From the NCBI GenBank assembly GCA_014801075.1, contig JAAVEW010000008.1, positions 79,850-143,849 of the forward strand: a stretch of 64,000 nt of DNA, given 5' to 3'. Under the pieces are notes generated by a model that worked only from the letters and a program-made list of their open reading frames with translations, did no database searches and had not been told where the DNA came from. Each line of letters opens with the position of its first letter. Position 1 is the first letter of the stretch. Positions 16,583 through 63,280 of this stretch are shown here, piece after piece. Source of the DNA: Barnesiella sp. (GTDB taxonomy: Bacteria; Bacteroidota; Bacteroidia; Bacteroidales; Muribaculaceae). The position numbers and the translations under genes were made by a program.

Positions 16583-17830
16583 TCAGGTGAGGGTTAGGGT
16601 GGAGAAGTTGGCGGGACGGAGGGTGGAGGCTGCTGCGTGGAGGTCGGCGGGGGTGAGGGATTCGATGGAGGCAGCGATGTCGGCGGGGGTGATTACCTTG
16701 TCGCGGAGCAGCAGGGAGCGGGCGGCCGAGAGGATAGTCTGCTCGGATGAGGCGGTCGATACCGTCAACTGACCTATGTACTGGCGTTTGGCACGCTGCA
16801 GGGCCGCGGGGGTGAGCATGTTGTCGGCCATGCGGCGTAACTCGCTGTCGACCAGACGGCGGCAGCGGGCCGTGTCCTCGGGGTTGCAACCGAAATAGAT
16901 GGCCATCAAACCGCAGTCGGTGTACATTGCCAGTGATGACTCCACGCTGTAGACGAGGCCGCGGCGTTCGCGCAGCGCGACGTTGAGGCGCGAGTTCATG
17001 CCGGGGCCGCCGAGCATGTTGTTGAGCAACGCAAATGCGTGGCGCTCAGGGGAGAAGAGCGAGGGGATGCGGGCGCCCATGACGGTGTGTCCCTGATGGT
17101 TGGAACCGTCGCCGCGGGTCTCGTCAAACCCTTCTATTACAGGGGGGACCGACTCAGTACGCTCCACCGCGCCATCACGCAGTCCTGCGAAATGGCGGTC
17201 GATAAGACGGGCCACGGTAGCCACACTCTCGCCGCCGAGATAGAACACCGTCATGTTGGGCACGCGGTAAAAACGGTCGAGAAATCCGCGGCACACCGCG
17301 CTGTTAAATGTCATGAGCGATTCCCTGTCGCCCAGAATGTTATGCCCTAACGGCGAACCGGCGAACACGAGGTCGTCAAAGTCGTCGAACACTGCTTCGG
17401 AGGGGGTGTCGAGGTAGGAATCAATCTCATCGGCCACCACCTCGCGCTCCTTGTCGAGCTCGGCATCGGGAAACTCCGAGTCCTTCACGAGGTCGGCGAT
17501 GAGCGAAGTGGCGCGCGACGCGTTGCCGCGCGGGAAGATGGAGTAGACGAATGTCTCCTCCTTGGTGGTGTAGGCATTTAGTTCGCCACCGACGGTCTCC
17601 ATGCAGTTTATTATGGATGAGGCGCGTCGCTTGTGGGTGCCCTTGAAGATAGTGTGCTCCACGAAGTGGGCAAGGCCGTAGTGGCCTGGCAGTTCGTCGC
17701 GCGAGCCTACGCGGGTGGCCACACCGAAGATTTCGGCCACCGTGTCGCGGTGCACGTGGACAAATCGCAACCCCGAGTCGAGGGTCACTACCGTGTAGTC
17801 CGAGCGGTTGTCGAGCAGAGGTGATACCAT
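16583..17830 (-). CDS. M16 family zinc metallopeptidase
   Basis: HYGLAHFVEHTIFKGTHKRRASSIINCMETVGGELNAYTTKEETFVY (HxxEH). Confidence 0.95.
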   Translation of the reverse strand: MVSPLLDNRSDYTVVTLDSGLRFVHVHRDTVAEIFGVATRVGSRDELPGHYGLAHFVEHTIFKGTHKRRASSIINCMETVGGELNAYTTKEETFVYSIFPRGNASRATSLIADLVKDSEFPDAELDKEREVVADEIDSYLDTPSEAVFDDFDDLVFAGSPLGHNILGDRESLMTFNSAVCRGFLDRFYRVPNMTVFYLGGESVATVARLIDRHFAGLRDGAVERTESVPPVIEGFDETRGDGSNHQGHTVMGARIPSLFSPERHAFALLNNMLGGPGMNSRLNVALRERRGLVYSVESSLAMYTDCGLMAIYFGCNPEDTARCRRLVDSELRRMADNMLTPAALQRAKRQYIGQLTVSTASSEQTILSAARSLLLRDKVITPADIAASIESLTPADLHAAASTLRPANFSTLTLT

Positions 17831-44445: not shown

Positions 44446-47400
44446 TTATTGGTTTGAAGTGAGGGTTAGGTCGGCGAGGATTACGGCGGTTTCGGCCTCG
44501 CTTTTTTCGGCGTCTTTGGGTTTCCAGGCCACGATGAAGCGCACGGAGGCGTTTTTTACTTTGTAGCCTTTGTTTTCCCAATCGGTAAGTGTTTCCTGCA
44601 TCTTGACCGACATTCGTGCTACGGGACGATTGGTGCGGGCGTCATGCAGGTAGTAGTCGTTGTAGGTCAGGGCATCACCGCTTCGGAGATTTAAGATGGC
44701 TTGTTTCTTGTCTTTGAAAAATCCGAGGTTCACGTCTTTGTGTGATAGCTGTAACACAATCTCATCGGGCTGAGGGTAGAGGTTCCTGTCGGTATAGTGC
44801 TGATTGGCGGGGAGGCGGTTGAAACAGTCACCGTTGGTGTGAATAAACAATCGTTTTTTTGCACGTGTAATTCCTACATAGTAACGTCGCAGGAGATTGT
44901 CGTCCTTAGTGAAGTTGTCGGAGATCATCATGTACACGTCGTCAAATTCACGGCCTTTGGCTTTGTGGATTGTGGACACTACGACATCAGCATTGGTGGT
45001 GTCGCAGAAATCCTCGACTGACGATTCAAATACATACTCTTTGAAGTCAGATGAATATTTGACTTTATTGGTGCTCTCAAACAGTTCGATGCATCGTTGC
45101 ACGTAGGGCAGACTCGTACTCCGGTCATATACGCGTAGTATGGATTGTTTGGCGTCATCCCACACTTCATCAGGAATCTGCGGTGTAGATGTGTATCGGT
45201 CGATATATTTCAGGAAGAATCTCATTTCGGCCATATTCCATAACCGGAATCCGTCCATTGACTGTATAAGTTTGCCGTTAATACCGTGGCGCCGCATGAG
45301 CGCCACTAAAATTACTGCCTCTTCATTGGTCTGGGTCAGGACGCATGTTGTTCCGTCATTTCTGTTCTGAAGCAGATTATTTATGACGGGCTGATACATA
45401 TATTTTGATTGGTGGCGGGTTAACTCCACCAGGCCGTTCTCCTCGCTCATGGAGATAATCGGTTGGGTCTTGATTCGTCGGGAGATGCTTTTGGAGAATT
45501 CATTTGCGAAATTCACAGGATTGCGGGTACTCCTGTAATTTTCAGTCATTTCAATAAGAATGCTGTCAGTTTCCTGAGCCAACCGGTACATGTATCGGGA
45601 ATCTGAGCCGCGAAATTCGTATATATTCTGGTCATCGTCGCCAACGGCGATGATGCGTATATCCTCATTGTTTGACTTCAATGCTTTGATGAGGGCAAAT
45701 TCGTCGCACCCCATGTCCTGGGCTTCGTCGATTACCAATACCGTCTTGCCTATGCGGTTTGGCTCCACTTCACCCTGACTTATCATTTCGGCTGCTTTTG
45801 CCACTACATTTTTTGCATCTTCAAGATTACCTATACGGCCGAGGAGGTCAAAACAATAGGAGTGAAATGTCTTTATTTCCACAAAATGGGCGGCGTTCCC
45901 AATCAGTTGCATCAATCTTTGTTTGAACTCCGTTGCCGCCGAGCGTGAGAATGTCAGCATAAGCAGCTGCTCGTGTTTCACGTCCTCAAGCAGCAGGAGC
46001 GATGCAAGTTTGTGTACAAGTACACGGGTCTTTCCGCTTCCGGGCCCGGCCGCCACGACTATGCAACGGGAATTCTTATTGGAGATAATCTCCATCTGGC
46101 ATTTCGACAATTGTCCGAAGAGTTGCCTGTATTTCTGCGGGGTGAGATTGCGTTGTATCTCGCTTATTCTCTCTCCTTTAAAGTATTTAGAGATAAATTT
46201 CCTGTAATCGAGTTTGAAATAATCCTGCACATATTGCAGAGCGGCGTCATAATCCTTAACCATAAGATTGGCATATTCGCCGACTATGTGGACCTGCTGT
46301 ATCTTTAACTTGTAGAACTCGTTGAGAGTGCGGTAATCGTCCTGTTTATATCGTGATTTCGTATCCTTGATACGACGGATATTCATGGCGTTGTAAAGAA
46401 CCAGAAATCCACCGTCAAGTTTGAGCGCGCCTATTTTGGAGAGGTAGAGCAGGGCCTCCTCCACATCTTCCAGTCTGATGTCAGTGAGGCTGCCGAACAG
46501 TGATTGCGAACTCGACCTGATTACATTAAGTAACTCAACTACAGAAAACTGAATTGCTTTACCGGGCTCGGTGACTGTGGCCGACTTGTACAGCCATTCG
46601 ACGGCAAACCTGCATATCTCCAGTCGCTTTTCAAAGCGGCGTATTGTCTTTTCAAGATTGGCCATACGGCTGATTTCCATATTCCTGGACGCATCCTCCT
46701 TTTTGTGGGTGTAGCCCATTACGGTCATGAAATAGAGCAGGGTACGTATGTCCTTCTCTTTCGAGGTGACTATACCGTCGTTGACAGCATTGTCGTTGAG
46801 CTGTTTGCAGGAGATGCGCAACGAGTCGTCAGGGATGTGGTTGAGGATATATTGCTCGAGTCTGACAAAACGCTCGAGAAGCATCTGTGATTTACGCTCC
46901 GAGTCGCCGGCGTCGAGAAGATAGGCTGAGATATCTTTGCTGTCGGCCAAAATACCCTCCTGTCTCATGCGTTGCACAACGGATATTACGTCGCGTTTGT
47001 TAAGCCCCAGAATATCGGCAAGATAATCAATACGTGATTCAGCCTCGGCATCGGGCGATTTGGATATATATTTCTGTGAGATAAGTGATTTGATAACTCT
47101 GACGGCGTTCTCTACTTCGTCGGTTCCAAATAGTTGGGAGGCCGACAATCGTTCGCGTGCCTCATCGATATTGTTTACCTTAATTCCTGTAGCATAAACG
47201 TGGGGCACGTTATTGCCTCGTTGCAGGTAACCGCTTTGTTCAAGAGTGCCCAAAGCAGTGCGTACTCGTGTCTCGATGTCGGATACCGAGTCGTCCCATC
47301 CCGCCTGGCGGGCAATCTCCAATGCCGAGCAATTGACAGTGGGGCGTTTCTTGGTCAAATCCTTTACCGCCTTCCACACCTGTTGTATCTCGCTGATACT

Positions 47401-49311
47401 TAGTTTGGTCTGGTTGAGTAGTATGAAATGCTTATCCAGGTCGTTGTCACTGTAGAGTACGAAGCAGCGAGCATTGAGGCTGGGGTCGCGTCCCGCACGT
47501 CCCGCTTCCTGCACGTAATTTTCGAGTGAGTCGGATATGTCGTAATGCACCACAAGTCCCACATCTTTCTTGTCAACGCCCATGCCAAACGCCGACGTCG
47601 CAACAATGATGCTTACCCTGTTCTGCATGAATGCTTCCTGATTGGATATTTTTTCCTCAGAGTCCATCTTGCCGTTAAACGGTAACGCGTTGTAACCGTC
47701 GCGGGTCAGTTTGATTGCCAGTTCTTTTGTGCGCCTCGTGCGGGATACATAGACTATTGTGGGGCAATCGGCCTCGGCAATGAGTTCCCTGAGTTTCAGA
47801 TATTTGTCGCTGTCATTGTCGACGTGGATGACCGAGTAGCGCAGATTGGTGCGCGAAGCTGACGATGCAAATAATTGTAAATCAAGGTTAAGCGTTTGCT
47901 TGAAGTAGTCGCAGATATCCTGGATGACTTTCTGTTTGGCTGTCGCGGTAAAGCATGACACTGGTATAGGTTGGCTACACCTTTTATTCTGCTGATACTT
48001 CTGAATGAACTTGCCTATGTATAGATAATCCACCCTGAAATCCTGTCCCCAGGCCGAGAAACAGTGAGCCTCGTCAATGACAAACCTGACCACATTTCGA
48101 GCCATCAATATCTTCTCAATGGTCTTTGATCGGAGCATCTCGGGAGAGATGTACAGCAGTGCTGCCTCACCATCTCTGACACGCTGTATTGATAACGCGC
48201 GTGTTATAGGGTCCTGCATGCCGTTTATCGTGACAGCATCGGTGATTCCTCTTTCGGCCAGATTGTCTACCTGGTCCTTCATCAGTGACTGCAACGGGGA
48301 GATGACTACGGTAAGACCGTGCAGCGCTCTGTTGGCCATTAAAGCCGGAAGTTGGAATGTAAGGGATTTGCCTCCGCCCGTTGGGAATATGGCCAATAAT
48401 GATTTTCCGTCGACCGCCGCGCTTGCTGCGAGTTCCTGCAACGGTTCACCCTCATAAGTGCGGAATCGGTCATAACCAAAGAATGCCTTAAGATTATGCG
48501 ATACATCAAGTTGCGCGTTGCAGTAGGGGCAACCCTTCTTACAGCGGGTGTTTCTAAGGAGTTTGAGTATAGACTCTACTTCGGGGAAGTGGTAAAGCAC
48601 CCAGCCCGGAGTAATGGAATAGTAGCCTGTGTCGATAAGCGATAAAGCGTAAGCCAGTGCGCACGGATATTTCGCGATGATTGTTTCTATGTCGGTATTG
48701 TCGCATATCTTTCCTGCGTAAAGAGTCTTTACCAAACCGGCAATATCTGTATCCGCATATTCAGCACCGGCCATTTGTAGAAAACCTTCAAACTCCCGTC
48801 CGTTCTTGAGTAAGGAGGCAAACAATAAACGCCTCTCACGTGGTAGAGCTTCCCATGCCGAGATCTCGTCAAAGAGTAGTTCGCGGGCATTTTTGCAGTC
48901 ATTTACGGGATTGTTTATCTGCTCGCTTACTATTTTATCATCTTTTACAAGATGGTGGTACGGTCGTTCGGGAAATAATAGCGGAGAGAGGTATAGAGTG
49001 TCGACGAGGGTAAACGGGCAGTTCGTTCCTTTAAACAGGAACTCTGCGTCGTGGTGGATAATATTATGCCCGCACAAATAATTTATGCCGTTGAGGAACT
49101 CAAGTAAAGCATCCTTATCTGATTTGTGGAACACAGCTCCATCATCCCTTATTGCACCGATGTCGTGTATCTTACGGTCAGTCGTTCCCACTTCGATATC
49201 GACAATGGCGTAGCGGGTGGAATCAGAAGTCGATTTTGAGTCATTATTGTCGACAACGTTTCCACTCTCAGCATTCTTACTTATTCCCAAAAACTTACGC
49301 CATATTGACAT
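44446..49311 (-). CDS. Giant fusion: DnaQ-like 3'-5' exonuclease + RecQ helicase + UvrD/Rep-like SF1 helicase
   Basis: YAIVDIEVGT...HNIIHHD...NNPVNDCKNA; FPTGGGKSLTFQLPALM, IDEAHCFSAWGQDFR; VAAGPGSGKTRVLVHKLASLL, VIDEAQDM, ENYRSTRNPVNFAN, STIHKAKGREFDDVYMM. Confidence 0.92.
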   Translation of the reverse strand: MSIWRKFLGISKNAESGNVVDNNDSKSTSDSTRYAIVDIEVGTTDRKIHDIGAIRDDGAVFHKSDKDALLEFLNGINYLCGHNIIHHDAEFLFKGTNCPFTLVDTLYLSPLLFPERPYHHLVKDDKIVSEQINNPVNDCKNARELLFDEISAWEALPRERRLLFASLLKNGREFEGFLQMAGAEYADTDIAGLVKTLYAGKICDNTDIETIIAKYPCALAYALSLIDTGYYSITPGWVLYHFPEVESILKLLRNTRCKKGCPYCNAQLDVSHNLKAFFGYDRFRTYEGEPLQELAASAAVDGKSLLAIFPTGGGKSLTFQLPALMANRALHGLTVVISPLQSLMKDQVDNLAERGITDAVTINGMQDPITRALSIQRVRDGEAALLYISPEMLRSKTIEKILMARNVVRFVIDEAHCFSAWGQDFRVDYLYIGKFIQKYQQNKRCSQPIPVSCFTATAKQKVIQDICDYFKQTLNLDLQLFASSASRTNLRYSVIHVDNDSDKYLKLRELIAEADCPTIVYVSRTRRTKELAIKLTRDGYNALPFNGKMDSEEKISNQEAFMQNRVSIIVATSAFGMGVDKKDVGLVVHYDISDSLENYVQEAGRAGRDPSLNARCFVLYSDNDLDKHFILLNQTKLSISEIQQVWKAVKDLTKKRPTVNCSALEIARQAGWDDSVSDIETRVRTALGTLEQSGYLQRGNNVPHVYATGIKVNNIDEARERLSASQLFGTDEVENAVRVIKSLISQKYISKSPDAEAESRIDYLADILGLNKRDVISVVQRMRQEGILADSKDISAYLLDAGDSERKSQMLLERFVRLEQYILNHIPDDSLRISCKQLNDNAVNDGIVTSKEKDIRTLLYFMTVMGYTHKKEDASRNMEISRMANLEKTIRRFEKRLEICRFAVEWLYKSATVTEPGKAIQFSVVELLNVIRSSSQSLFGSLTDIRLEDVEEALLYLSKIGALKLDGGFLVLYNAMNIRRIKDTKSRYKQDDYRTLNEFYKLKIQQVHIVGEYANLMVKDYDAALQYVQDYFKLDYRKFISKYFKGERISEIQRNLTPQKYRQLFGQLSKCQMEIISNKNSRCIVVAAGPGSGKTRVLVHKLASLLLLEDVKHEQLLMLTFSRSAATEFKQRLMQLIGNAAHFVEIKTFHSYCFDLLGRIGNLEDAKNVVAKAAEMISQGEVEPNRIGKTVLVIDEAQDMGCDEFALIKALKSNNEDIRIIAVGDDDQNIYEFRGSDSRYMYRLAQETDSILIEMTENYRSTRNPVNFANEFSKSISRRIKTQPIISMSEENGLVELTRHQSKYMYQPVINNLLQNRNDGTTCVLTQTNEEAVILVALMRRHGINGKLIQSMDGFRLWNMAEMRFFLKYIDRYTSTPQIPDEVWDDAKQSILRVYDRSTSLPYVQRCIELFESTNKVKYSSDFKEYVFESSVEDFCDTTNADVVVSTIHKAKGREFDDVYMMISDNFTKDDNLLRRYYVGITRAKKRLFIHTNGDCFNRLPANQHYTDRNLYPQPDEIVLQLSHKDVNLGFFKDKKQAILNLRSGDALTYNDYYLHDARTNRPVARMSVKMQETLTDWENKGYKVKNASVRFIVAWKPKDAEKSEAETAVILADLTLTSNQ

Positions 49312-52103: not shown

Positions 52104-52592
52104 TCAACTGACGCTATAACTTAACTCACAGTAATCAGTGCGATATAATAAGAAATCACCCCGAAAGTTTTGTTGACTTTCGGGGTGATTTCTTAGGTAA
52201 TAAGCTTGAGCACATGTCCGAGAAACTGTTCCAATTGCTGATAATAGAAAAAATCCACATATTATCGCAGGCCATTTGTTCTTCTTACGTTTTTTAGGTG
52301 CATTATCTAATTTTTCGGATACAAATTGGACTGCCCGATCATGTTTTAGGGAAATACTTGATTGTAACGTCGTATCTTGTGAATTAGAACTAAATGAATA
52401 ATCATATTTCTTCTTTAGTTCCTTATCAGATAATACCAAGAAAGCCTCATTGACTTCAATGAGTTGATTCTTTACATCTTTACTCAGAACTTGTGAGCGA
52501 AGACGTGCTGTTATTTCTTTGTATTTAGCTAAAATTACATCTTGGGAATCTTCGTATGAAGATAACCCCAAGATGTTGTAGTAGTTTTTCAT
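52104..52592 (-). CDS. Membrane-anchored J-domain-like protein lacking the HPD motif
   Basis: NYYNILGLSSYEDSQDVILAKYKEITARL...IEVNEAFLVLSDKELKKKYDYSF, then TM WPAIICGFFLLSAIGTV. Confidence 0.75.
   Translation of the reverse strand: MKNYYNILGLSSYEDSQDVILAKYKEITARLRSQVLSKDVKNQLIEVNEAFLVLSDKELKKKYDYSFSSNSQDTTLQSSISLKHDRAVQFVSEKLDNAPKKRKKNKWPAIICGFFLLSAIGTVSRTCAQAYYLRNHPESQQNFRGDFLLYRTDYCELSYSVS
52151..52193. terminator. Strong hairpin between convergent GH76 and island genes, inside the last codons of the J-like ORF
   Basis: 18-bp perfect stem AGAAATCACCCCGAAAGT/ACTTTCGGGGTGATTTCT, 7-nt loop. Confidence 0.6.
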
Positions 52593-52835: not shown

Positions 52836-53600
52836 TTATTTACATTGTATAAAAGGTTTAATGGCGTCAGTGCTCCACGCGTAATTAAGATTCGCTTGTG
52901 AGCCGTCTGCGAAGGAACCGGATGTAATCCCGACTACTTCTCCATATTCATTGATTAAAGCTCCTCCACTACTGCCATAATCTATAAGGGCCGAGATTTG
53001 CATAAGATTCTTGTCACGCCATTGGGACACTTCTCCAGACGAAAATGTATTTTCGAGACCACGGGGACTTCCTATTGCATAGACCTTCTCGCCAACTTGC
53101 GGCTTGTATTTAGCAATCGGTATGTAGTTAGTATTGGACACACCAACTCTAAATAGAATGAAATCCTCATCCGCATCACTATGGATTACTTCTGCGACCT
53201 TATAAATTTCATCGCTATCAGCAAGTTTGATTTGCTCTGCTCCAATATTTGTTCCTTGAAACACATGATAGTTGCTTACTGCTAATCCATCGGAGTTGAT
53301 GAAGAACCCGGAACCTTGATAGCCATTATAACCATCGGATGTAAACACCATAAATACAGCAGTATTATACTTAGCGAAGATTTTAGAACCGTCAAGTTTG
53401 TTCTTATCACCCCGATTATTTGAAACAGTAACATTCAAATTGCGTTGACCGCCACGAGTCACGTTTGACTGTTGTGTATTGCTCATTTCAGAATTACTGG
53501 AATGAGAGTTTGCCTGTTGCCTATTGTGTCCTGACTTATGGGCGCATGACACAATGCTCAAACTTGTAAGTATCGCAATTATTAGGCTATTTGTTTTCAT
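52836..53600 (-). CDS. Trypsin-like serine protease lipoprotein
   Basis: Start MKTNSLIIAILTSLSIVSC (lipobox); GSGFFINSDGLAVSNYHVF (His), DADEDFILFRV (Asp), DYGSSGGALINEYGEVVGI (Ser). Confidence 0.88.
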   Translation of the reverse strand: MKTNSLIIAILTSLSIVSCAHKSGHNRQQANSHSSNSEMSNTQQSNVTRGGQRNLNVTVSNNRGDKNKLDGSKIFAKYNTAVFMVFTSDGYNGYQGSGFFINSDGLAVSNYHVFQGTNIGAEQIKLADSDEIYKVAEVIHSDADEDFILFRVGVSNTNYIPIAKYKPQVGEKVYAIGSPRGLENTFSSGEVSQWRDKNLMQISALIDYGSSGGALINEYGEVVGITSGSFADGSQANLNYAWSTDAIKPFIQCK

Positions 53601-54249
53601 TTGTTGATTCAAAGATATTCTTGGGTAAGATGTGTATAAGAAAACGTTGATTTTCTGTTTCAACAGTCTCACGCATAGAGTGTGTATCAAGTTTGCCATC
53701 GCCGCTACCTGAAATCAGAATTTCACAGTTATTGCCGAATTTGATGCCTCTACCATCAACCCAAAATCGCATAAGAGCAAGAGCACGCTGATAGCTCAAT
53801 TCATAGTTATACGTATAGTTATCTTTGGATGCCTGACCTTCTACAATAAGCACATATTGATTCTCTTTATGCTTATCGAGAAAATCTTGGATTTCTTTTC
53901 CGGCATTGGCTAACTTATCTAATTGAGTATCCTTGTCCGGGGCTATAATTGTATTTAAGTCCGATTTACCTGCGGGATAACGGACTTGGATATTAAGAAC
54001 ATATTTCTTATACTCCGGTCTATATTCAAAATAATCTTTACTAAGGTCCTTTGTAGACTCTTCGACTTTTTTTATCTCTTGAAGTTGAGCTTCGGTAGCC
54101 TCCATTTTCTGGAGTTGAGCTTCCGATGCTTCCATTTGTTTGTGAAGGAAGACAATGACAAGAATAAATAGAACTAACATAACGAAAAAAAGGCTCGTCA
54201 TGAGATCTGAATAACTCGTCCAAAAGAAAGATTCTTTTTTCTGTGACAT
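53587..54249 (-). CDS. MotB/ZorB-like protein with OmpA-like C-terminal domain
   Basis: FFWTSYSDLMTSLFFVMLVLFILVIVFLHK; NQYVLIVEGQASKDNYTYNYELSYQRALALMRFW. Confidence 0.85.
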   Translation of the reverse strand: MSQKKESFFWTSYSDLMTSLFFVMLVLFILVIVFLHKQMEASEAQLQKMEATEAQLQEIKKVEESTKDLSKDYFEYRPEYKKYVLNIQVRYPAGKSDLNTIIAPDKDTQLDKLANAGKEIQDFLDKHKENQYVLIVEGQASKDNYTYNYELSYQRALALMRFWVDGRGIKFGNNCEILISGSGDGKLDTHSMRETVETENQRFLIHILPKNIFESTNENK

Positions 54250-54263
54250 TGCTTTTATTGCTG

Positions 54264-55880
54264 TTAGATAGTGTCCGTATTTATCTCATTGTTAACCGGC
54301 ATAACAAAAGTATCCGTAACAACTTGCGTAGATTCGGGTACAGTTTTAACGGCCTCGGTATTTGTTGGGTTAGGTTGCGTCGAAGTTCCCTTGGGGAAGA
54401 AGTAGATAACGATGTTAAATATACATGCTGCTGCAATTATCAGGAGAGCAGATATTGCGGTCCATTTCATCCACGTTGGCATTGAGGACCCTTCAATAAC
54501 AGTATCTCGCTCACTACCGAGTTGAGCCGTTACTTTTGCCGTCTGCATTGATTGTTTAATGGCAAAAGATATATCCGAAGCCAACTTTGCATTAGACTTT
54601 TCCACCTTGTCGATTAACTTATCTAATCGAACCGGGATAGATGAAATCTCTTCAAGTTGTTTTGCCATTTGAGGCATTTGAGACATTTGAGCACTGAACT
54701 GAGCATTCAACTGTGTCATAAATTGCTCAAAAGATTCTTTCTCATCATCGAGTATCTGCTTGAAATGTTCGCTTTGTTCTACGAAACGCTTCTGCATTTC
54801 ATTGACATTTTCAGAAGTGGATTCTTTGATATTAACCAAGGATTCCTGAAGAGTTTTATCCGCATCGGCAGTGGCTTTTGCAATTTCACTCTTATGACGA
54901 CGGAAGAAATCTCTAATTTCTTCAAGAACATGAAGTCTATCTGCCTGTTCACCAAACTGGGATTCAAATTTATGAATCGCATCAGTATATCCTTCAATAT
55001 CGTTAAGATACTCATTGAATACTTCCAGTTTGTCAGTGCACTCTTTAAGTTCTTGCAGCACACGCACATTTGCCTTAGCCATTTTCATTACATCCATGTC
55101 GTGAACAGCCTTAATTATATCGGCTTGTATTGCATACGATTGATTAACGGCATTAAGAGCATTGCCAAGATTGGAAGTGTTCTCCTTGAATGTATTGTTA
55201 AACTTATTCAGATTCTGTACAAGATTATTCAATGCTTGAGATGTATCAGAAGGCAATTCAGGCAGAAGTTCTGATTGCATCCATGCAAGAAATGAATTTT
55301 TGCCATTCTCTTCTTTCAGTTTACAACGCTTAAACAAGAGGGAATTTGCTGTTGTAAGCAAAATGCCTATGATAGAGGCAAGCATAGCCCATGCTACACC
55401 GCTAAGCAGAGCATTTATACCGGCAGCGGCGTTCTGAGAGGCTGAATTGATGACCCCGCCCGAACTGCCCATAAGCGTCAGGATTGCATTTGAATGAAGC
55501 AAATCCCATAGTCCGAAAATGACACCGATCATCGTTCCTGCTAATCCCCAATATAATGGTATTGGAGTTTGGGTTGCTATATCATTTTCTACTGAATCAC
55601 AGTGACGGTCAACTGCATCCTTTAGCAACCCGAAATCAATAACAGAACCGGAGTTGTTTCCAAGATATTTATTGATAGAATTTTTGATAGACTCGAAAAT
55701 CCCATTTCCGTCACCATAAACTCCGTCAACGAAACTTGTTTGAATATTTCGTCTGAGCCTCCACGATGATTCTTCAGAAAATATTTTACTGAATTGACCC
55801 ATTCGTAACAGATTCTTTACAAAAAAGAAAATCTGAATACAGATGATAGCGATAATAATAACTGGTACTAATGTATGCAT
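54264..55880 (-). CDS. MotA/ZorA-like membrane protein with long coiled-coil and extra C-terminal TM
   Basis: IPLYWGLAGTMIGVIFGLWDLL...AAAGINALLSGVAWAMLASIIGILLTTANSLLF; coiled-coil about 200-450; TM WTAISALLIIAAACIFNIVIYFF. Confidence 0.82.
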   Translation of the reverse strand: MHTLVPVIIIAIICIQIFFFVKNLLRMGQFSKIFSEESSWRLRRNIQTSFVDGVYGDGNGIFESIKNSINKYLGNNSGSVIDFGLLKDAVDRHCDSVENDIATQTPIPLYWGLAGTMIGVIFGLWDLLHSNAILTLMGSSGGVINSASQNAAAGINALLSGVAWAMLASIIGILLTTANSLLFKRCKLKEENGKNSFLAWMQSELLPELPSDTSQALNNLVQNLNKFNNTFKENTSNLGNALNAVNQSYAIQADIIKAVHDMDVMKMAKANVRVLQELKECTDKLEVFNEYLNDIEGYTDAIHKFESQFGEQADRLHVLEEIRDFFRRHKSEIAKATADADKTLQESLVNIKESTSENVNEMQKRFVEQSEHFKQILDDEKESFEQFMTQLNAQFSAQMSQMPQMAKQLEEISSIPVRLDKLIDKVEKSNAKLASDISFAIKQSMQTAKVTAQLGSERDTVIEGSSMPTWMKWTAISALLIIAAACIFNIVIYFFPKGTSTQPNPTNTEAVKTVPESTQVVTDTFVMPVNNEINTDTI

Positions 55881-55886
55881 GGTTTA

Positions 55887-56831
55887 TCAGGAAAGTACAA
55901 TTGTTGCTTTTTTAGTAATAATCCATCGATCCCCATCTTTTTGGGCCTCTCCGGATAGAATAACTCTCATTTGTGTCGCTTCGGAAAGAGCGCAGCCCTT
56001 AATGTCAAGAGCCATTTTTATTGCATCGTTCGACTTAAGATCATTCAGGTACTGTGTACCTTCCAATGGTCTGAATTCAGCTTTATTATTTCTAATAGAG
56101 ACAGTAAATCTGGAGTCGGACTCTCGAATGTCAGAAAATCTCTTAAAATAGGCTTCGGTTAATGACATCTGAGTGGGGAGACCGAAATACCCGTTCTGCG
56201 GCTCATTGGCGTACTGACGAACATTTGAAACCGGTATTGACTGAACGATATTTTGTTGTACCGGAGTTTGGCTTTGCATCATTTTATTAAGTTGTCGTTC
56301 AACATTGTTTAAACGAGACGCCAACGAAGAATATTCGCTACCTGTAATACCTGAATTTGTAGATTTTGTTCGTGCAGAGGATGGTGTCTGTAGCTCAAGA
56401 CTGCTAATTTTTCGTTCAAATCCACCTAATCTATTACTATGTTCCTTCGCTTTAAGTTTAATAGAATTAAGTTTGATGATTGAAATCACTGCTATCAACA
56501 GTGCAATTGCCGCAATTATCCATGAAATATAGTCAAATATATGAGACGACTCTTTTAGGTCCTTGATTTCTTTTGAGAGCTCGCTGAGTTTTTTAGTCGT
56601 CGTCTCTTGTTTTTTTGATAATGTTTCAAATTTTGACACTAAAACATTGATAGAATCTAAAACTTGTTTTTTTTCGGTAGAATCCATGGGTCTGTCTCCA
56701 ACCTGAGATTCAAGTTGATCATTACCTGCAGACTGCGGATTGCCGGTTGCATTACTGTCCTCACATCCGGTCAACGCCATTCCTCCAATAATGAAGGTGG
56801 CCATAATCATGAATATTCTCAAAGTCTTCAT
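55887..56831 (-). CDS. Coiled-coil lipoprotein with internal TM
   Basis: Lipobox MALTGCEDSN; heptad repeats; TM YISWIIAAIALLIAVISII. Confidence 0.7.
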   Translation of the reverse strand: MKTLRIFMIMATFIIGGMALTGCEDSNATGNPQSAGNDQLESQVGDRPMDSTEKKQVLDSINVLVSKFETLSKKQETTTKKLSELSKEIKDLKESSHIFDYISWIIAAIALLIAVISIIKLNSIKLKAKEHSNRLGGFERKISSLELQTPSSARTKSTNSGITGSEYSSLASRLNNVERQLNKMMQSQTPVQQNIVQSIPVSNVRQYANEPQNGYFGLPTQMSLTEAYFKRFSDIRESDSRFTVSIRNNKAEFRPLEGTQYLNDLKSNDAIKMALDIKGCALSEATQMRVILSGEAQKDGDRWIITKKATIVLS

Positions 56832-59800
56832 ACTTGTAAATTTCTTAAAGCGTTAAAGATTTCTGTGGACATTGATTGTAGCACACCTTTAATAGGATAA
56901 TAAAAGAATGTTTCTTCTATCATGTCATCAGCCTCTGTCTCCTCCCTGCGTTGCGTAATCCCTTTATCAAGGAATGTAGCGAGATCCTTTTTCGCGGCTT
57001 CCTGTGCCACTTTAAATGAAGACAAGTTTATCCCGAAATTTTTGTCGAAGTTAAATGCATTATTCATTTCAACGAAAACAAATCTGAAAAAGTCCTCGAC
57101 TGCCTTCACTGTCTTTTTCTTATAACTATCAGTGATGCTTGCATAGGTATCATTATTTGTTACGATACCTGAGCAATCGCTCTTGAATACAATTGTTTTG
57201 TCTCTACTGTCCTCGTCTTCCACTCCAATAAGTCCACCTTTACATGTTGAGTCTTTGGGGCTTGAATCTCTTTCGAGACCAAGCAATTCGAGTTCTTTAC
57301 CATATGGTTTGCCAAGAATCTTCTCAAATATCAATTTCGTATATTTAGCAAGTATCTTTGAGTCAGTTGTGATGACACGGATAACTTTACTTCCGTTACC
57401 ACTGAACGATATATGACGAGGGACATCGAGTTCAAGAGCCTTCGTTATCTGCGCTATATGGTAGATGATTGAGGTATAGAATACAATAAATACAATCTTG
57501 AAATCCTCATCTTCTTGAAGTAAAAAATTAAAGTCAATCGCTCTATCGTTAATGCCGACAGCTCGAGGCAGAGAGTTATCTTTTAGTCCGAACAAGAACG
57601 ATGCCATATTAGACGGCTGTTCGTTATTAGTACTGTTAAATACTCGAATCAGATCTGACAGATTCTTTTCTTCAAGCAATTTGAGAATATTGTCCTTATG
57701 GTAGTCCACGATGCCGTTATGACTGTCAAGATTCGAAAATGAGTTCTCAAATAAAGCATTGGAGGCAAATCTGAAAGAAGTTACATGACTTATAACTCTG
57801 TCTTTGGCAAATGCAATATCTGTCGTTCCTCCTCCGATATCAACATTAACAAGACTGGTCGCCGTTGAATATCTCTTAAAGAAATACTGTATAGGAGCAG
57901 CGGATTCGGTCATATAGTTAGTAACTCCATTTCCGAAGTATTCCCTGTATGCATCATCCCATGTTTCTTTTATACGGCGTAGGCGGTTAGGAGCCATACT
58001 GATAGGGTAGAACCATGTTATCTTAGTCTTGGATAAATCTCCATTATTCAGCAATACCTTATTACGAATAATCAACATAATGGTACGGACATATGATTCC
58101 ATAACCCGCAAATCTTCTCCTTTGCCCCATTTAATGTTGTATTTGAGGTTGTTATACGACAAATCAGAACGTTTGTCATAAGTGAACGGCAAGTTTACGA
58201 GTGTGAATGGGTCAATAGTCCTACTCCAATCTACGGTTTTAGCACATGAAAGGACAGTTCTTGTTGGGAACTTAAAATCACCGCTGCCAATTTCTGCCGG
58301 TATAAAGTCTTTTTCTATAAGTTCCGTCTCAGCTTGCAGATCCTCAATATAGCCATATTCGTTCTTCTGAGGTATGAACATTTCACAGAGTTCCCTATCT
58401 TTTTGATTGAAAGCGAATACTTTTGGCGCTTCCCCGCTCTTGCGGTATTCTATATGGGTATTGGATGTACCGAGGTCAACTGCAAATTCGAATGTATCCA
58501 CGTTGCGTTGTTGCTTAAATAAGGGTACGATGACTCCATGATATGAATTGCAACGGACTTGGATATAATCAAAGTTTTGACCTTTGATAAGATAGTTCTC
58601 GGCCTTTATAAGTATCTCTTGATCCTCATTTCTGCAAGATTTAAAGGGCACACTGATTTTTTCATCATCAGTATAGAATGTTAACTCAATCTTAGCGCCG
58701 GATGCCTGAATACACGAAACATTATAGATTGCATCTGCCGCATTGTTGAAGCGAACCTGCGGCATAATAAAGCTGGTAAACTTCAATTCTGCAATGTTTC
58801 CTGCATTATTTGTTATATCAGCAGAACTGTTGTTATAATAGAGACGAGAGTATTCTATATAAGATATATTGCCGGCCCCTTTTATCGGGATACGTAGAGT
58901 TACACTGACAGAATCGCCTGCAAGCAGTTTCATTTCAACCATAGGTTTGCCATCAGGCACATTGCCACGAAGTTCTTCAATAGTAAAATATTTGAAAAAC
59001 AACGGTTTTAATGGAATGAGGAACGCCAGCTCCGGTTTATCTATTTTTATGTGAGCATCGAAGTAATTTGCGGTATTAAGCGTATGCGGCACCTTAATAA
59101 TGGTATCCTCAAGGAAATCGCTGATAGTAAGATAGGGATGTATCGAGCCCTCAAATGGCAACTGACGTTTTTCCAAATCTGATTCTGTCTCCTCGTAGCT
59201 GGCACGATTTGTATTACCCCATTTTCCGGTAGTATACTGTAAATTGCTATATCGGTTGCCTGCCTCAACAGGAAGAACCAACGGTAGGTTTTCAGTCTGC
59301 TTTGATGTCTTGATCACAAAGTCGCTTGAAGTTGACACAGGACGATGGGACTTCTTGTAAAGTGTGTATCCCAATACCTCTACAAGGTCATTCTGCTGAA
59401 CATCCTTTATCTCTATCGCATCAAAATCACTAAGAGTGTTAGTGGAGACTCCATTCAGTTCGTTCTTTTTGTTTTGATCATCGATTGCCTTATAGGTTAC
59501 ATTTAGATATGCCTCTACTTCCGGGAACAGACCGGCAAAATTCGGTATGCTCTTTCGCAAAGCAAACAAATATTTTACAAACTCAAAGTCTCGTTTATAA
59601 AGAGGCTGGTAATCACTGTCAAACGGTCTGTCTTCACCAAAGAATATATCATTGACATAACTGAGGTCGTTTGCATTACTAAAGAATAGTGTTGCCGGAG
59701 ATGTAGCTCCTATAATGTTCAGCTCGTCCGGCCCCTCAATATAATTTAAAAGATAGATATTCTTGAGTTTGTCAAAATTATAGGTTTTAGCATCCGAGCT

Positions 59801-60223
59801 CATGTACTTTTGCAAGGCATCAGCTAAATAACGATGTCCTGCAACAATGGACTGTTCTAATTCAGTCAGCATTATGGATGGATCCCATTTAATTACCTCA
59901 ATCTTACCAATATATTTGTCGAGATTGAAGAATATTTCTGCAACGTCAAGAGTGTCGGAGACCATTTTATGGAAAATGGTCTTACCATCCAAGTCTATCC
60001 TTCTTGTTCTCTTGTCAGGCTTACAAACTTCCTTAAATGCTGTCTTTATAAGGTCAATGCGGGCAAATGGCGATGGTATTGAGGTAATCTCATGACAAGC
60101 TGATGCTCCGTCAGGGTCTTCAATTGTATCGCGACTTGCCGAGTTATAGGGGAATGCCGGACTGCTATTCCAGTCTTCATAAGTTGAAGTACCTTCCTTA
60201 TATAATCTAAATATCTTTGACAT
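56828..60223 (-). CDS. Actin/Hsp70-like ATPase with large N-terminal extension
   Basis: Phosphate-1 FEFAVDLGTSNTHIEYR; phosphate-2 LVNVDIGGGTTDIAF; adenosine-type HISFSGNGSKVIRV. Confidence 0.85.
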   Translation of the reverse strand: MSKIFRLYKEGTSTYEDWNSSPAFPYNSASRDTIEDPDGASACHEITSIPSPFARIDLIKTAFKEVCKPDKRTRRIDLDGKTIFHKMVSDTLDVAEIFFNLDKYIGKIEVIKWDPSIMLTELEQSIVAGHRYLADALQKYMSSDAKTYNFDKLKNIYLLNYIEGPDELNIIGATSPATLFFSNANDLSYVNDIFFGEDRPFDSDYQPLYKRDFEFVKYLFALRKSIPNFAGLFPEVEAYLNVTYKAIDDQNKKNELNGVSTNTLSDFDAIEIKDVQQNDLVEVLGYTLYKKSHRPVSTSSDFVIKTSKQTENLPLVLPVEAGNRYSNLQYTTGKWGNTNRASYEETESDLEKRQLPFEGSIHPYLTISDFLEDTIIKVPHTLNTANYFDAHIKIDKPELAFLIPLKPLFFKYFTIEELRGNVPDGKPMVEMKLLAGDSVSVTLRIPIKGAGNISYIEYSRLYYNNSSADITNNAGNIAELKFTSFIMPQVRFNNAADAIYNVSCIQASGAKIELTFYTDDEKISVPFKSCRNEDQEILIKAENYLIKGQNFDYIQVRCNSYHGVIVPLFKQQRNVDTFEFAVDLGTSNTHIEYRKSGEAPKVFAFNQKDRELCEMFIPQKNEYGYIEDLQAETELIEKDFIPAEIGSGDFKFPTRTVLSCAKTVDWSRTIDPFTLVNLPFTYDKRSDLSYNNLKYNIKWGKGEDLRVMESYVRTIMLIIRNKVLLNNGDLSKTKITWFYPISMAPNRLRRIKETWDDAYREYFGNGVTNYMTESAAPIQYFFKRYSTATSLVNVDIGGGTTDIAFAKDRVISHVTSFRFASNALFENSFSNLDSHNGIVDYHKDNILKLLEEKNLSDLIRVFNSTNNEQPSNMASFLFGLKDNSLPRAVGINDRAIDFNFLLQEDEDFKIVFIVFYTSIIYHIAQITKALELDVPRHISFSGNGSKVIRVITTDSKILAKYTKLIFEKILGKPYGKELELLGLERDSSPKDSTCKGGLIGVEDEDSRDKTIVFKSDCSGIVTNNDTYASITDSYKKKTVKAVEDFFRFVFVEMNNAFNFDKNFGINLSSFKVAQEAAKKDLATFLDKGITQRREETEADDMIEETFFYYPIKGVLQSMSTEIFNALRNLQV

Positions 60224-60228
60224 AATGA

Positions 60229-61623
60229 TTAGTTGCTTAACTTTTCTTTTACAAGTCGCTTAGTACCGAGATAGAACATCTCAAGGAATCTATTCTCATT
60301 GCCGCTACCCTTGCAATTACCGATAGCTGAATTTAGTCGGTCAGTAATAAGATTATAGTCCGACAATTTGCTCAAAATTCTTTTGGGCTTAACTCCTTCA
60401 ACGAGATTAAACGGTTTATCTCCGCATGAAAGGTCAAACAGATATAGTGAACGCTTGTTCTCTCGCATTTCGATCAACCACTCGTGATATTTGTGGAAGA
60501 AATCAGTAAGGTCATTAAAGAACATGCTATTATATAAGTCTTCAAAATTGCCCTTGTTCGCTTTAAAAGAATTAGACCTATAAGTGTCAACTTTATGGGT
60601 GAGAGCATTGGCCATCATTGTGAACTGAACCATAGGATTATAGAGCATATCACGCATCTTGCGATAGAACGAATTGAATGATACGGTATCTGCTTCATCT
60701 TTAATGCCCAATTCCATATTAGCCGTCCCGGTAAATGTGCCATTGGAGAAATCAACGATAGCAGTAGCGCCCAGAAATTCAATTAAGTGAGCATCATTTT
60801 GTTGGGCCGACCCTCCTTCATGATTCTCGTATGTCTGGGCTATATCATCAGCGAGATAATAAAGTGCATTTATAGAACCGTTTTTACTGATATTGCTCTC
60901 ATAATACGCAAGTGCCGATTTTGTTTTGGATATGAACGTAGAGGAATCAATTTCGCTTTCTTCGTCTTGCTTTAGCTTAAAATATGGTAGTATGGTGATT
61001 GCTCCAATGGGGGCACGGTTAATAAGGTCGTGATTTGAGAAATTGCTACCTGTGCGTAGAGTTTTCAGCAATAGCGGGAATCCACTTGCACCGGTCCCAC
61101 CAAATATTGAACTGATTATAAATATCTTATCGCCGTCACTGAATTCATTAGCGAAAGTGTCAAAATCCGTGGAGTGTGCTATTTGATTTAAAACTACACT
61201 CCCAATATTAGGATTGCCCTTGAATCCAACCTCCATTGATGATTGAAGGTTCTTATCAGAGAAAAGCATCTTGGTCAATGACTGATTCGCCTTTGACATG
61301 GATGCGAAGTCAATGAACTGCTGAAACGATTTATCGTCAGTGTCATTGATTAGAAGAGTATAATTCGGCAATATTTGTTTTATTTCAGTGCGGAAAAACC
61401 GACTCTCATTCGCGTCGCTAAATTGTAGATTGCTGCGTATTGCGGAATATTTGTTTAGCAAACTTACCGTCCGCGTTAAATCTGCATTTGAGGTGTCAGG
61501 ATCAATTATAATTGGCACAACTTCGTCAACTCCGACCTTGACTCCCGAAGCTAACATCATTGTTAAGGACCTCAATACTCTGGATCCTGTGCCGCCAATA
61601 CCGAAAATGAATAATTTTGACAT
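60229..61623 (-). CDS. Tubulin/FtsZ-like GTPase-fold protein
   Basis: N-terminal KLFIFGIGGTGSRVLRSL; tubulin-signature-like FIISSIFGGTGASGFPLLLKTLR. Confidence 0.78.
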   Translation of the reverse strand: MSKLFIFGIGGTGSRVLRSLTMMLASGVKVGVDEVVPIIIDPDTSNADLTRTVSLLNKYSAIRSNLQFSDANESRFFRTEIKQILPNYTLLINDTDDKSFQQFIDFASMSKANQSLTKMLFSDKNLQSSMEVGFKGNPNIGSVVLNQIAHSTDFDTFANEFSDGDKIFIISSIFGGTGASGFPLLLKTLRTGSNFSNHDLINRAPIGAITILPYFKLKQDEESEIDSSTFISKTKSALAYYESNISKNGSINALYYLADDIAQTYENHEGGSAQQNDAHLIEFLGATAIVDFSNGTFTGTANMELGIKDEADTVSFNSFYRKMRDMLYNPMVQFTMMANALTHKVDTYRSNSFKANKGNFEDLYNSMFFNDLTDFFHKYHEWLIEMRENKRSLYLFDLSCGDKPFNLVEGVKPKRILSKLSDYNLITDRLNSAIGNCKGSGNENRFLEMFYLGTKRLVKEKLSN

Positions 61624-61626
61624 AGT

Positions 61627-62082
61627 TTAAAACGGTGCTGAGGTGTTTTTACTCCACCATTTGAATATGAAAGAGAAAATTATGAATGCGATGATAGATA
61701 AAATCATATTGGAAACTCCGAAACAAAGTATTTCAGACTCTCCGATATTCAGTGGAACTTGTAAATTTGTTGAAGGATCAATTGTAACCATCTTATTATC
61801 ATAGTAGTCTTTTAAAACCCATTGCCAGCCAACTATGAAATTAATTACGGCATTTATTCCTAAAAATATCATCCAACCCCACCAGAAGTTTAATCGAGGA
61901 TGGTCTACTACATAATAATAGATCAGCACCATTGCAAGACTTATGCCAAGCATGGTAAGTCCTATACCAATGAAAGAATTGTTTGGCGATATGGGGGAGG
62001 ATGATCCCCACATATATTCTGCAAGTTCAAGGCCAAAAAAATCTTCAAACCAGCAGTAGATACTACCTAAAAAATCACCCAT
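61627..62082 (-). CDS. Small polytopic membrane protein
   Basis: Three to four hydrophobic segments; 3-4 bp from neighbours. Confidence 0.7.
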   Translation of the reverse strand: MGDFLGSIYCWFEDFFGLELAEYMWGSSSPISPNNSFIGIGLTMLGISLAMVLIYYYVVDHPRLNFWWGWMIFLGINAVINFIVGWQWVLKDYYDNKMVTIDPSTNLQVPLNIGESEILCFGVSNMILSIIAFIIFSFIFKWWSKNTSAPF

Positions 62083-62083
62083 A

Positions 62084-63280
62084 TTATTTTCGTTTAACGT
62101 TAAAATTAAAAGTGGTACTTATTTTTTCATTCTTATAGGCATCTGCAACACCCTGAATCAGATATTTTATGCCAGTTGTTTTATCCATATTTTCTTGAAT
62201 GTCAGCCCCGGTATCATCATTTGATTCCGAAACCCATGAGGGCATACCGGGAGTATTAAATGTTAAGCAATCCTGAGCTATCGTAGTGCCTTTGGGGATT
62301 GTAAATTTAATATAGTGAGAATACTTGCTTTTGGAATCCGAGACTGGATATATACCATCTACTACTATAGTAGGATTGTTGAAAGTGTAATTTGCCTTAT
62401 CTTGCACATCATCATCTGTTTGTAAAGTAGTGCGAAAATCTGCTTGAATAATTATAGAATAATCGCCATGCACCGGTATAATAGTTTTACCGGTAAGAGC
62501 ATTATTAAAAATATCAAATGGCACATTGGACTGATTGGTAAACGCTACCACTCCGCTTAAATCATACTTATCCAATTGTGAAAACGGTACAGTTGTATTG
62601 AGTTTGGCAAGATAGTTTTTATTACCAAATATCCATATATAGTATGGGCGTTTTACGTCTTTAAGTATTTCCACTGTGCCATTGGGATGGAAAAATTTCC
62701 CATTAAAGTCAGATGATAATTTTAATATCTCCACACCTAAGTCAGGTATTCTTTTTTGAGTGTTAATAACTTCATCTTTGATACGAATTTCACAGTTAGT
62801 CAAAAACTTCTGTGCATCTTTTGCCGGTAAATCCAATATGCAATCAGATACAAATATACATACTGTGGTGTCGTTAGCTTCATTAAGAACTTTAGCGATC
62901 AGATCGCCTAAATCAGTATTTGACATATTACCACCTGCTTTTTTGAATGCAGCTGGATTTAAGTCTTTTATGTAGCTTGTAAGACTACCGTTATAAGGTA
63001 TCAATATGCTATTGATATAATAAAGCTCAGTCTTTGAGGAAACTCTGTTGATATCGCTAATATAATCATATACGACATCTTTCAACTGAGAGCCGTCACA
63101 CATATATCCGTCCATACTTCCTGAGTTTTCAATGAAAACTTTGATGCATGGATCATTTGACGGTATAGTATCTGCTACAGGTGCAGAGCTAACCTCTATT
63201 TTGTCATGACCACAACTTACAACCATTAATAGTATGATTGCAGCCATGCTAACGAGTAGTATGTATGAACGATGTTTCAT
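62084..63280 (-). CDS. vWA-like lipoprotein
   Basis: Lipobox IILLMVVSCGHD; CIKVFIENSGSMDGYM (MIDAS-like), NTDLGDLI, TTVCIFVSDCILDL. Confidence 0.72.
   Translation of the reverse strand: MKHRSYILLVSMAAIILLMVVSCGHDKIEVSSAPVADTIPSNDPCIKVFIENSGSMDGYMCDGSQLKDVVYDYISDINRVSSKTELYYINSILIPYNGSLTSYIKDLNPAAFKKAGGNMSNTDLGDLIAKVLNEANDTTVCIFVSDCILDLPAKDAQKFLTNCEIRIKDEVINTQKRIPDLGVEILKLSSDFNGKFFHPNGTVEILKDVKRPYYIWIFGNKNYLAKLNTTVPFSQLDKYDLSGVVAFTNQSNVPFDIFNNALTGKTIIPVHGDYSIIIQADFRTTLQTDDDVQDKANYTFNNPTIVVDGIYPVSDSKSKYSHYIKFTIPKGTTIAQDCLTFNTPGMPSWVSESNDDTGADIQENMDKTTGIKYLIQGVADAYKNEKISTTFNFNVKRK

What the first reader, a model, noticed from the sequence alone, without database searches (positions are those of the whole stretch)
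56828..61623. Adjacent actin/Hsp70-fold and tubulin-fold genes in one operon
The 1131-aa protein carries both phosphate loops and an adenosine-type motif of the actin/Hsp70 superfamily in its C-terminal half, after about 600 aa of unassigned sequence. The upstream gene carries an FtsZ/tubulin-like GGTGASG loop and an N-terminal Rossmann-like glycine loop. Both cytomotive folds side by side outside the division cluster is unusual. A distant relation to SrfB-like proteins is possible but I cannot verify it.
Basis: partly seen in the sequence, partly recalled or inferred. Interest (0 to 1): 0.78.

Follow-up and report, generated by a model that had tools for sequence, protein, structure and literature searches.

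The report
Tubulin–actin–motor envelope gene cassette
A gut bacterium carries a mobile-looking set of eight genes that places a tubulin-like protein beside an actin/Hsp70-like protein, with an ion-driven membrane motor of the anti-phage Zorya kind and two secreted lipoproteins; the set is conserved but unstudied and may be a new envelope-spanning defence machine.

Summary
The 464-aa gene has an FtsZ/tubulin-type GTPase half. The 1131-aa gene has a C-terminal actin/Hsp70-fold ATPase. Both are supported by motifs conserved in 27 homologues, by profiles and by AlphaFold/Foldseek. A tight eight-gene operon (52836–63280, − strand) encodes a vWA lipoprotein, a multi-TM protein, the tubulin, the actin-like protein, a coiled-coil membrane connector, ZorA- and ZorB-like motor subunits and a trypsin-like lipoprotein. 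It lies in a 38% GC island (flanks ~50–55%) next to a tyrosine recombinase. The tubulin–actin pair is adjacent in all ~30 loci examined, in patchy Bacteroidota and in cyanobacterial plasmids. ZorAB is present in 18 of 24 Bacteroidota-type loci and in none of the cyanobacterial ones. The tubulin is a short relative of the FtsZl1/Tubulin_2 family, already linked to vWA and OmpA genes in 2010. It lacks recognisable tubulin/FtsZ C-terminal domains and a T7 loop, so filament formation cannot be assumed. The 1131-aa protein is not SrfB; a true SrfB lies elsewhere in this genome. Most likely it is a trans-envelope, nucleotide-switched, ion-powered conflict (anti-phage) machine. That function is inferred, not shown. 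New variant of a known kind.

The parts
62084..63280 (-). 398-aa lipoprotein (lipobox ending at C23) with a degenerate vWA MIDAS (E51-x-S53-x-S55-M, S145-D146); predicted periplasmic
   Evidence: E51, S53, S55, M56, S145, D146 kept in at least 21 of 23 homologues; lipobox and single N-terminal TM; family found first in the cassette at nearly all loci
61627..62082 (-). 151-aa multi-TM protein of unknown function
   Evidence: hydropathy predicts 3-4 TM segments; homologues at the same position
60229..61623 (-). 464-aa tubulin/FtsZ-type GTPase-domain protein (TUB), short relative of FtsZl1/Tubulin_2
   Evidence: Pfam Tubulin 2e-5 and Tubulin_2 3.5e-5, both under the curated cut-offs, matched in 15/15 and 13/15 relatives; AF2 pLDDT 82.6, pTM 0.88; Foldseek best hits FtsZ and phage tubulin, prob 1.00, E about 4e-3
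56828..60223 (-). 1131-aa actin/Hsp70-fold ATPase (ACT): N-terminal alpha/beta region (about 52-266) and beta-rich region (about 374-567), then the actin/Hsp70 fold (about 576-1131)
   Evidence: motifs; AF2 pLDDT 73.5; Foldseek PDB top 50 all MreB/Hsp70/Arp8/GppA, E about 1e-7, prob 1.00; hhalign to FtsA E 2e-9
55887..56831 (-). 314-aa lipobox + coiled coil + TM (101-119) + C-terminal domain; predicted inner-membrane connector, fast evolving
   Evidence: TM and lipobox; related connector ('C6') family at the same position in other loci by HMM
54264..55880 (-). 538-aa ZorA/MotA/TolQ-like motor subunit with long coiled-coil tail and an extra C-terminal TM
   Evidence: PADLOC ZorA2 3e-7; TPLYxGLxGTxxG motor-core motif kept in the 19-row alignment; TMs at 3-21, 157-175, 476-494
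53587..54249 (-). 220-aa ZorB/MotB-like subunit: one TM with invariant D15 and an OmpA-type peptidoglycan-binding domain
   Evidence: PADLOC ZorB1 4.5e-14; Pfam OmpA 3.6e-6; D15 in 18/18 and LSYxRA motif
52836..53600 (-). trypsin-like (HtrA-type) lipoprotein protease; likely start at 53600 (IVSC lipobox), H-D-S triad present by eye
   Evidence: Pfam Trypsin_2 7e-25; alternative start; present in 7 of the loci
52104..52592 (-). 162-aa J-domain-like + TM protein, no HPD motif; 243 bp after the operon, probably accessory
   Evidence: Pfam DnaJ 9e-5, under cut-off; gap; found again only in L004
63613..63999 (-). C-terminal part of a tyrosine recombinase, cut by the end of the contig
   Evidence: Pfam Phage_integrase 9e-10; same-family integrase directly upstream of the cassette in L003, L004, L007, L009

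Best explanation
A horizontally moving, envelope-spanning machine. In the cytoplasm a tubulin-type GTPase and an actin/Hsp70-type ATPase work as obligate partners, most likely as a nucleotide-switched platform. They connect through the coiled-coil/TM connector and the multi-TM protein to a ZorA/ZorB-like ion-driven motor anchored to peptidoglycan, and to periplasmic vWA and (here) protease lipoproteins. By analogy with Zorya, disturbance of the envelope, e.g. by phage injection, would let ZorB grip peptidoglycan, open ion flow and turn the ZorA tail; the TUB/ACT platform would act as adaptor or switch. The likely role is defence against phages or other invaders. Shown: the operon, its conservation, the folds, and the motor and nucleotide-site residues. 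Inferred: complex formation, topology in detail, trigger, output and the defence role itself.
For: Tight operon with gaps of -14 to +14 bp. Cassette order conserved from Bacteroidales to Cytophagales at 25-90% identity, with correlated divergence (TUB-ACT 0.85, ACT-ZorA 0.88). Motor ion residue D15 and peptidoglycan motif conserved, matching the elements shown to matter in Zorya (PMC11890865). Patchy spread: 14 of 398 Bacteroidota genomes and 20 of 295 of the same order, 17 genera. Recombinase neighbour, low-GC island, core on cyanobacterial plasmids, two of the three examined typed as mobilizable. Related tubulin/HSP70 systems were proposed to be conflict systems (PMC7159879).
Against: No ZorC/D/E/F or other nucleic-acid-cutting effector in the operon. 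ZorAB is missing from several Bacteroidota loci and all three cyanobacterial loci examined. Neighbouring genes show only a few known defence families, many of them promiscuous models. No phage-challenge data exist. Downstream genes lean to periplasmic and wall enzymes (trypsin, YkuD, aspartyl protease), which also suits an envelope-maintenance role.
Confidence: 0.45

Rival explanations
1. Membrane remodelling or vesicle-forming system, as proposed in 2010 for the FtsZl1/vWA/OmpA gene clusters; TUB and ACT would scaffold or bend the inner membrane.
For: TUB is related to FtsZl1, and vWA and OmpA-domain neighbours match that paper's context (PMC2875224). The core without ZorAB still has vWA, TM and connector proteins.
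Against: No direct evidence for membrane bending. The T6-H7-T7 and C-terminal polymerisation parts are not recognisable. An ion-driven motor is not needed for this. The paper's own reviewer questioned the localisation.
Confidence: 0.25
2. Envelope protein quality control or surveillance: an Hsp70-like ATPase, J-domain protein, HtrA-like protease and vWA module that handle damaged envelope proteins.
For: Hsp70-like fold, periplasmic trypsin, J-domain-like gene next door, other envelope peptidases in related loci.
Against: J-domain gene lacks HPD, is separated by 243 bp and is rare in relatives. No Hsp70 substrate-binding domain is recognised in ACT. Patchy, mobile distribution is unusual for housekeeping.
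Confidence: 0.17
3. Replicon partitioning by an actin/tubulin pair (ParM/TubZ-like) that stabilises a mobile element.
For: Cassette lies on cyanobacterial plasmids and beside integrases.
Against: Periplasmic and membrane partners and a motor; no DNA-binding adaptor was recognised in the cassette; the Gloeothece plasmid already has ParA/ParB.
Confidence: 0.05

Closest known systems
FtsZl1 / Tubulin_2 (PF13809) gene clusters (Makarova & Koonin 2010, PMC2875224)
   Same: FtsZ-like GTPase half without a recognisable T6-H7-T7 or C-terminal FtsZ/tubulin domain; vWA and OmpA-domain neighbours; membrane-associated partners
   Different: Short (464 aa) with no long coiled-coil region; the paper's text mentions neither an adjacent actin/Hsp70-fold gene nor a MotA/ZorA partner; two long Tubulin_2 proteins inspected (L080, L081) lack these neighbours
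Zorya anti-phage systems, ZorA/ZorB (PMC11890865)
   Same: Ion-motor core motifs, conserved ZorB aspartate, peptidoglycan-binding domain, long cytoplasmic ZorA tail
   Different: No ZorC/D/E/F; ZorA here ends in an additional TM helix; tubulin and actin-like NTPases and vWA lipoprotein added; scores far below the NCBIfam ZorB1 cut-off
GTPase-centric conflict systems with tubulin and/or HSP70 (Kaur et al. 2020, PMC7159879)
   Same: Tubulin, HSP70-like, vWA and membrane components combined in one class of loci
   Different: No DO-GTPase or GAP1 recognised; there tubulin and HSP70 belong to non-overlapping themes, here the two folds are always adjacent; ion motor present
SrfB (PF07520)
   Same: Large protein with an actin/Hsp70-type phosphate-2 loop
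   Different: No full-length similarity; different domain order; different operon

Membership tests
FtsZl1 / Tubulin_2 | N-terminal FtsZ-like GTPase domain with T1 and T4 glycine loops | tested here: met
   Loops conserved in 27 homologues; Pfam Tubulin and Tubulin_2 hits at 1e-5 to 1e-6
FtsZl1 / Tubulin_2 | Score above the Pfam cut-off for Tubulin_2 | tested here: not met
   23.6 bits against 27
FtsZl1 / Tubulin_2 | Extended coiled coil plus alpha-helical C-terminal domain | tested here: not met
   Family is 440-580 aa against 1132-1208 aa for two Tubulin_2 proteins; C-terminus is helical but no long coiled coil in the model
FtsZ/tubulin cytomotive filaments | T7 loop catalytic residue and FtsZ_C/Tubulin_C domain | tested here: not met
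   No hit to either C-terminal domain in 15 members at E up to 1; T7 not assignable in alignment or model
FtsZ/tubulin cytomotive filaments | GTP-dependent polymerisation | not testable with these tools
   Needs protein biochemistry
Actin/Hsp70 ATPase superfamily | Phosphate-1, phosphate-2, adenosine motifs and the fold | tested here: met
SrfB (PF07520) | Match to the SrfB profile over its length | tested here: not met
   No window hit at E up to 1; only 1 of 14 relatives at 0.065; hhalign aligns 36 columns only
Zorya | ZorA/ZorB ion motor with conserved Asp and peptidoglycan domain | tested here: met
   Homology 4.5e-14 (ZorB) and 3e-7 (ZorA); D15 18/18. Homologous, but below the NCBIfam equivalog cut-off (28 of 400 bits)
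Zorya | ZorC/D or ZorE/F effector genes | tested here: not met
   No PADLOC hit to these among the ten window proteins
DO-GTPase/GAP1 conflict systems | TRAFAC DO-GTPase and GAP1 genes | tested here: not met
   None among Pfam hits of the ten window proteins at E up to 1

The most novel reading that the evidence does not exclude
The first machine in which a tubulin-fold GTPase and an actin-fold ATPase are obligate partners, forming mixed or paired assemblies that couple to, and are driven or gated by, a peptidoglycan-anchored ion-powered motor: a cytoskeleton-motor hybrid used for immunity.
Probability: 0.2. Interest if true: 0.9.

Novelty: new variant of a known kind. Interest (0 to 1): 0.62.

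Why it matters
FtsZl1-type tubulins have had a predicted but, as far as the held library shows, untested membrane-remodelling role since 2010. This cassette ties a relative of them to an actin/Hsp70-fold partner in every locus seen and, in most Bacteroidota copies, to a Zorya-type motor whose key residues are known. That makes the function directly testable by phage challenge and point mutants. If the two folds act together on one motor, it would be a pairing of the two great cytoskeletal superfamilies for which I found no precedent.

Tried and rejected
SrfB membership of the 1131-aa protein was rejected. Division-cluster paralogues were rejected: FtsZ is on another contig and the cassette is a low-GC island. 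Partitioning was held unlikely. A phage origin for the 1131-aa gene was not supported: no match in 50,697 phage records; three IMG/VR contigs carry the cassette but were not checked for viral hallmark genes. Defence-island enrichment was looked for with PADLOC on 92 neighbouring proteins; only scattered, partly promiscuous hits, without a control set, so inconclusive. An empty integration site was sought in congeners; none is usable because only 2 of 8 genomes (one being the window's own) match the flank, the other weakly. hhalign of TUB against Bacteroidota FtsZ gave only a weak match round T4 (E 0.019), reported as such. Literature searches of the held library found no paper describing tubulin, actin/Hsp70 and ZorAB-like genes together; subscription journals and bioRxiv preprints are largely not covered, so priority cannot be excluded.
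Full report
Observation. Both ORFs lie exactly at the stated coordinates on the − strand, 5 bp apart. The 464-aa protein (TUB) has loop T1, GIGGTG, and loop T4, FGGTGASG. The 1131-aa protein (ACT) has phosphate-1 VDLGTSNT, TESAAP, phosphate-2 DIGGGTTD and adenosine-type FSGNGS, all in its C-terminal half. In an alignment of 27 homologues that includes cyanobacterial ones, the key residues of these motifs are kept in at least 95%, so they are not chance matches.

Folds. The AlphaFold model of TUB is good (pLDDT 82.6, pTM 0.88). Its best solved-structure hit is FtsZ (probability 1.00, E 3.6e-3), and tubulins dominate the rest of the list; its best viral hit is a phage tubulin (probability 1.00). 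Global TM-scores are only 0.25-0.31. Pfam Tubulin matches all 15 members and Tubulin_2 matches 13, but none of the 15 hits FtsZ_C or Tubulin_C. So only the GTPase half is shown to be tubulin-like, and no T7 loop can be assigned. The ACT model is of moderate quality (pLDDT 73.5, pTM 0.61), but Foldseek's 50 best PDB hits are all of one superfamily: MreB, Hsp70 nucleotide-binding domains, Arp8, GppA (E about 1e-7, probability 1.00). Its profile also finds FtsA-sized genes in dozens of Bacteroidota genomes and aligns to FtsA at E 2e-9.

The real unit. Eight genes with gaps of −14 to +14 bp run from 63280 down to 52836: vWA lipoprotein, multi-TM protein, TUB, ACT, lipobox/coiled-coil/TM connector, ZorA-like, ZorB-like, trypsin-like lipoprotein. 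The vWA gene has an E-x-S-x-S variant of the MIDAS motif; E51 and S53 are kept in 22 of 23 and S55 in 21 of 23 homologues. ZorB has the motor aspartate in 18 of 18 (D15) and an OmpA-type peptidoglycan-binding motif; ZorA has the TPLYxGLxGT motor core, a long tail and an unusual C-terminal TM. The elements shown to matter in Zorya (ZorB aspartate, peptidoglycan-binding domain, ZorA tail; PMC11890865) therefore have counterparts here.

Conservation and spread. Related loci came from 15 GTDB contigs, three IMG/VR contigs, several whole genomes and plasmid-collection records. TUB and ACT are adjacent in every locus, about 30 in all. ZorA and ZorB follow in 18 of the 24 loci compared (with for L010), are absent or unrecognisable in L055, L058, L059 and L087, and are absent from the three cyanobacterial loci examined, which keep TUB, ACT and a connector-like protein, with a recognisable vWA gene in two of three. 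Components diverge in step. Only 14 of 398 Bacteroidota genomes and 20 of 295 genomes of the same order carry TUB. The window copy is in a 38% GC island beside a tyrosine recombinase cut by the contig end; the same recombinase family is directly upstream in L003, L004, L007 and L009.

What it is not. It is not SrfB: similarity is limited to about 40 residues at phosphate-2, and the genome has a genuine srfB next to a Virul_Fac (SrfC-like) gene elsewhere. It is not a complete Zorya: no ZorC/D/E/F. It is not a division-cluster paralogue: FtsZ is on another contig.

Known relatives. Makarova and Koonin (PMC2875224) described FtsZl1 tubulins with vWA and OmpA-family neighbours, with a Bacteroides caccae sequence in their alignment, and proposed membrane remodelling. 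Their supplementary gene lists were not available here, so some of the present cassettes may be in them. Kaur et al. (PMC7159879) described conflict systems with tubulin or HSP70 components. In the text I could read, neither mentions a MotA partner or a constantly adjacent actin-fold gene. I therefore call this a new variant of a known kind.

Function. The best-supported guess is a nucleotide-switched, ion-powered, envelope-spanning conflict machine (about 45%). Membrane remodelling (about 25%), envelope quality control (about 17%) and partitioning (about 5%) remain. The operon, folds and conserved residues are shown. Complex formation, trigger, output and the defence role are inferred; PADLOC hits among neighbours were few and partly promiscuous.

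Noticed in passing
G000 contig C11, locus L093:6837-15136: The same genome has a true srfB (PF07520, E 4e-171), a Virul_Fac (SrfC-like) gene and a subtilase; SrfB was found in only 2 of 199 Bacteroidota genomes.
   Followed up: partly
52104-52592: J-domain-like protein with a TM helix but no HPD motif, just after the operon; a longer homologue in L004.
   Followed up: partly
L084, L085, L086 (Picosynechococcus and Gloeothece plasmids): The tubulin-actin core, annotated almost entirely as hypothetical proteins, lies on cyanobacterial plasmids without ZorAB.
   Followed up: partly
L008:9223-12507: A decayed cassette: vWA frame cut to 103 aa, ACT frame to 368 aa, no motor genes after it, and an integrase on the opposite strand beside it.
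   Followed up: no
L007:3384-3417 and 16903-16936: A 34-bp imperfect direct repeat (79%) brackets integrase and cassette; possible attachment sites.
   Followed up: no
L004 (JAAVHD010000002.1): An 80%-identical cassette on a contig binned as Oscillibacter (Bacillota); misbinning or transfer between phyla.
   Followed up: no
L055, L059, L053/L054 downstream of the core: Where the trypsin gene is missing, other enzymes follow: aspartyl protease, YkuD transpeptidase, S9 peptidase.
   Followed up: partly
44446-49311: 1621-aa protein with a DEAD/DEAH helicase half and a UvrD-like half, outside the low-GC island.
   Followed up: no
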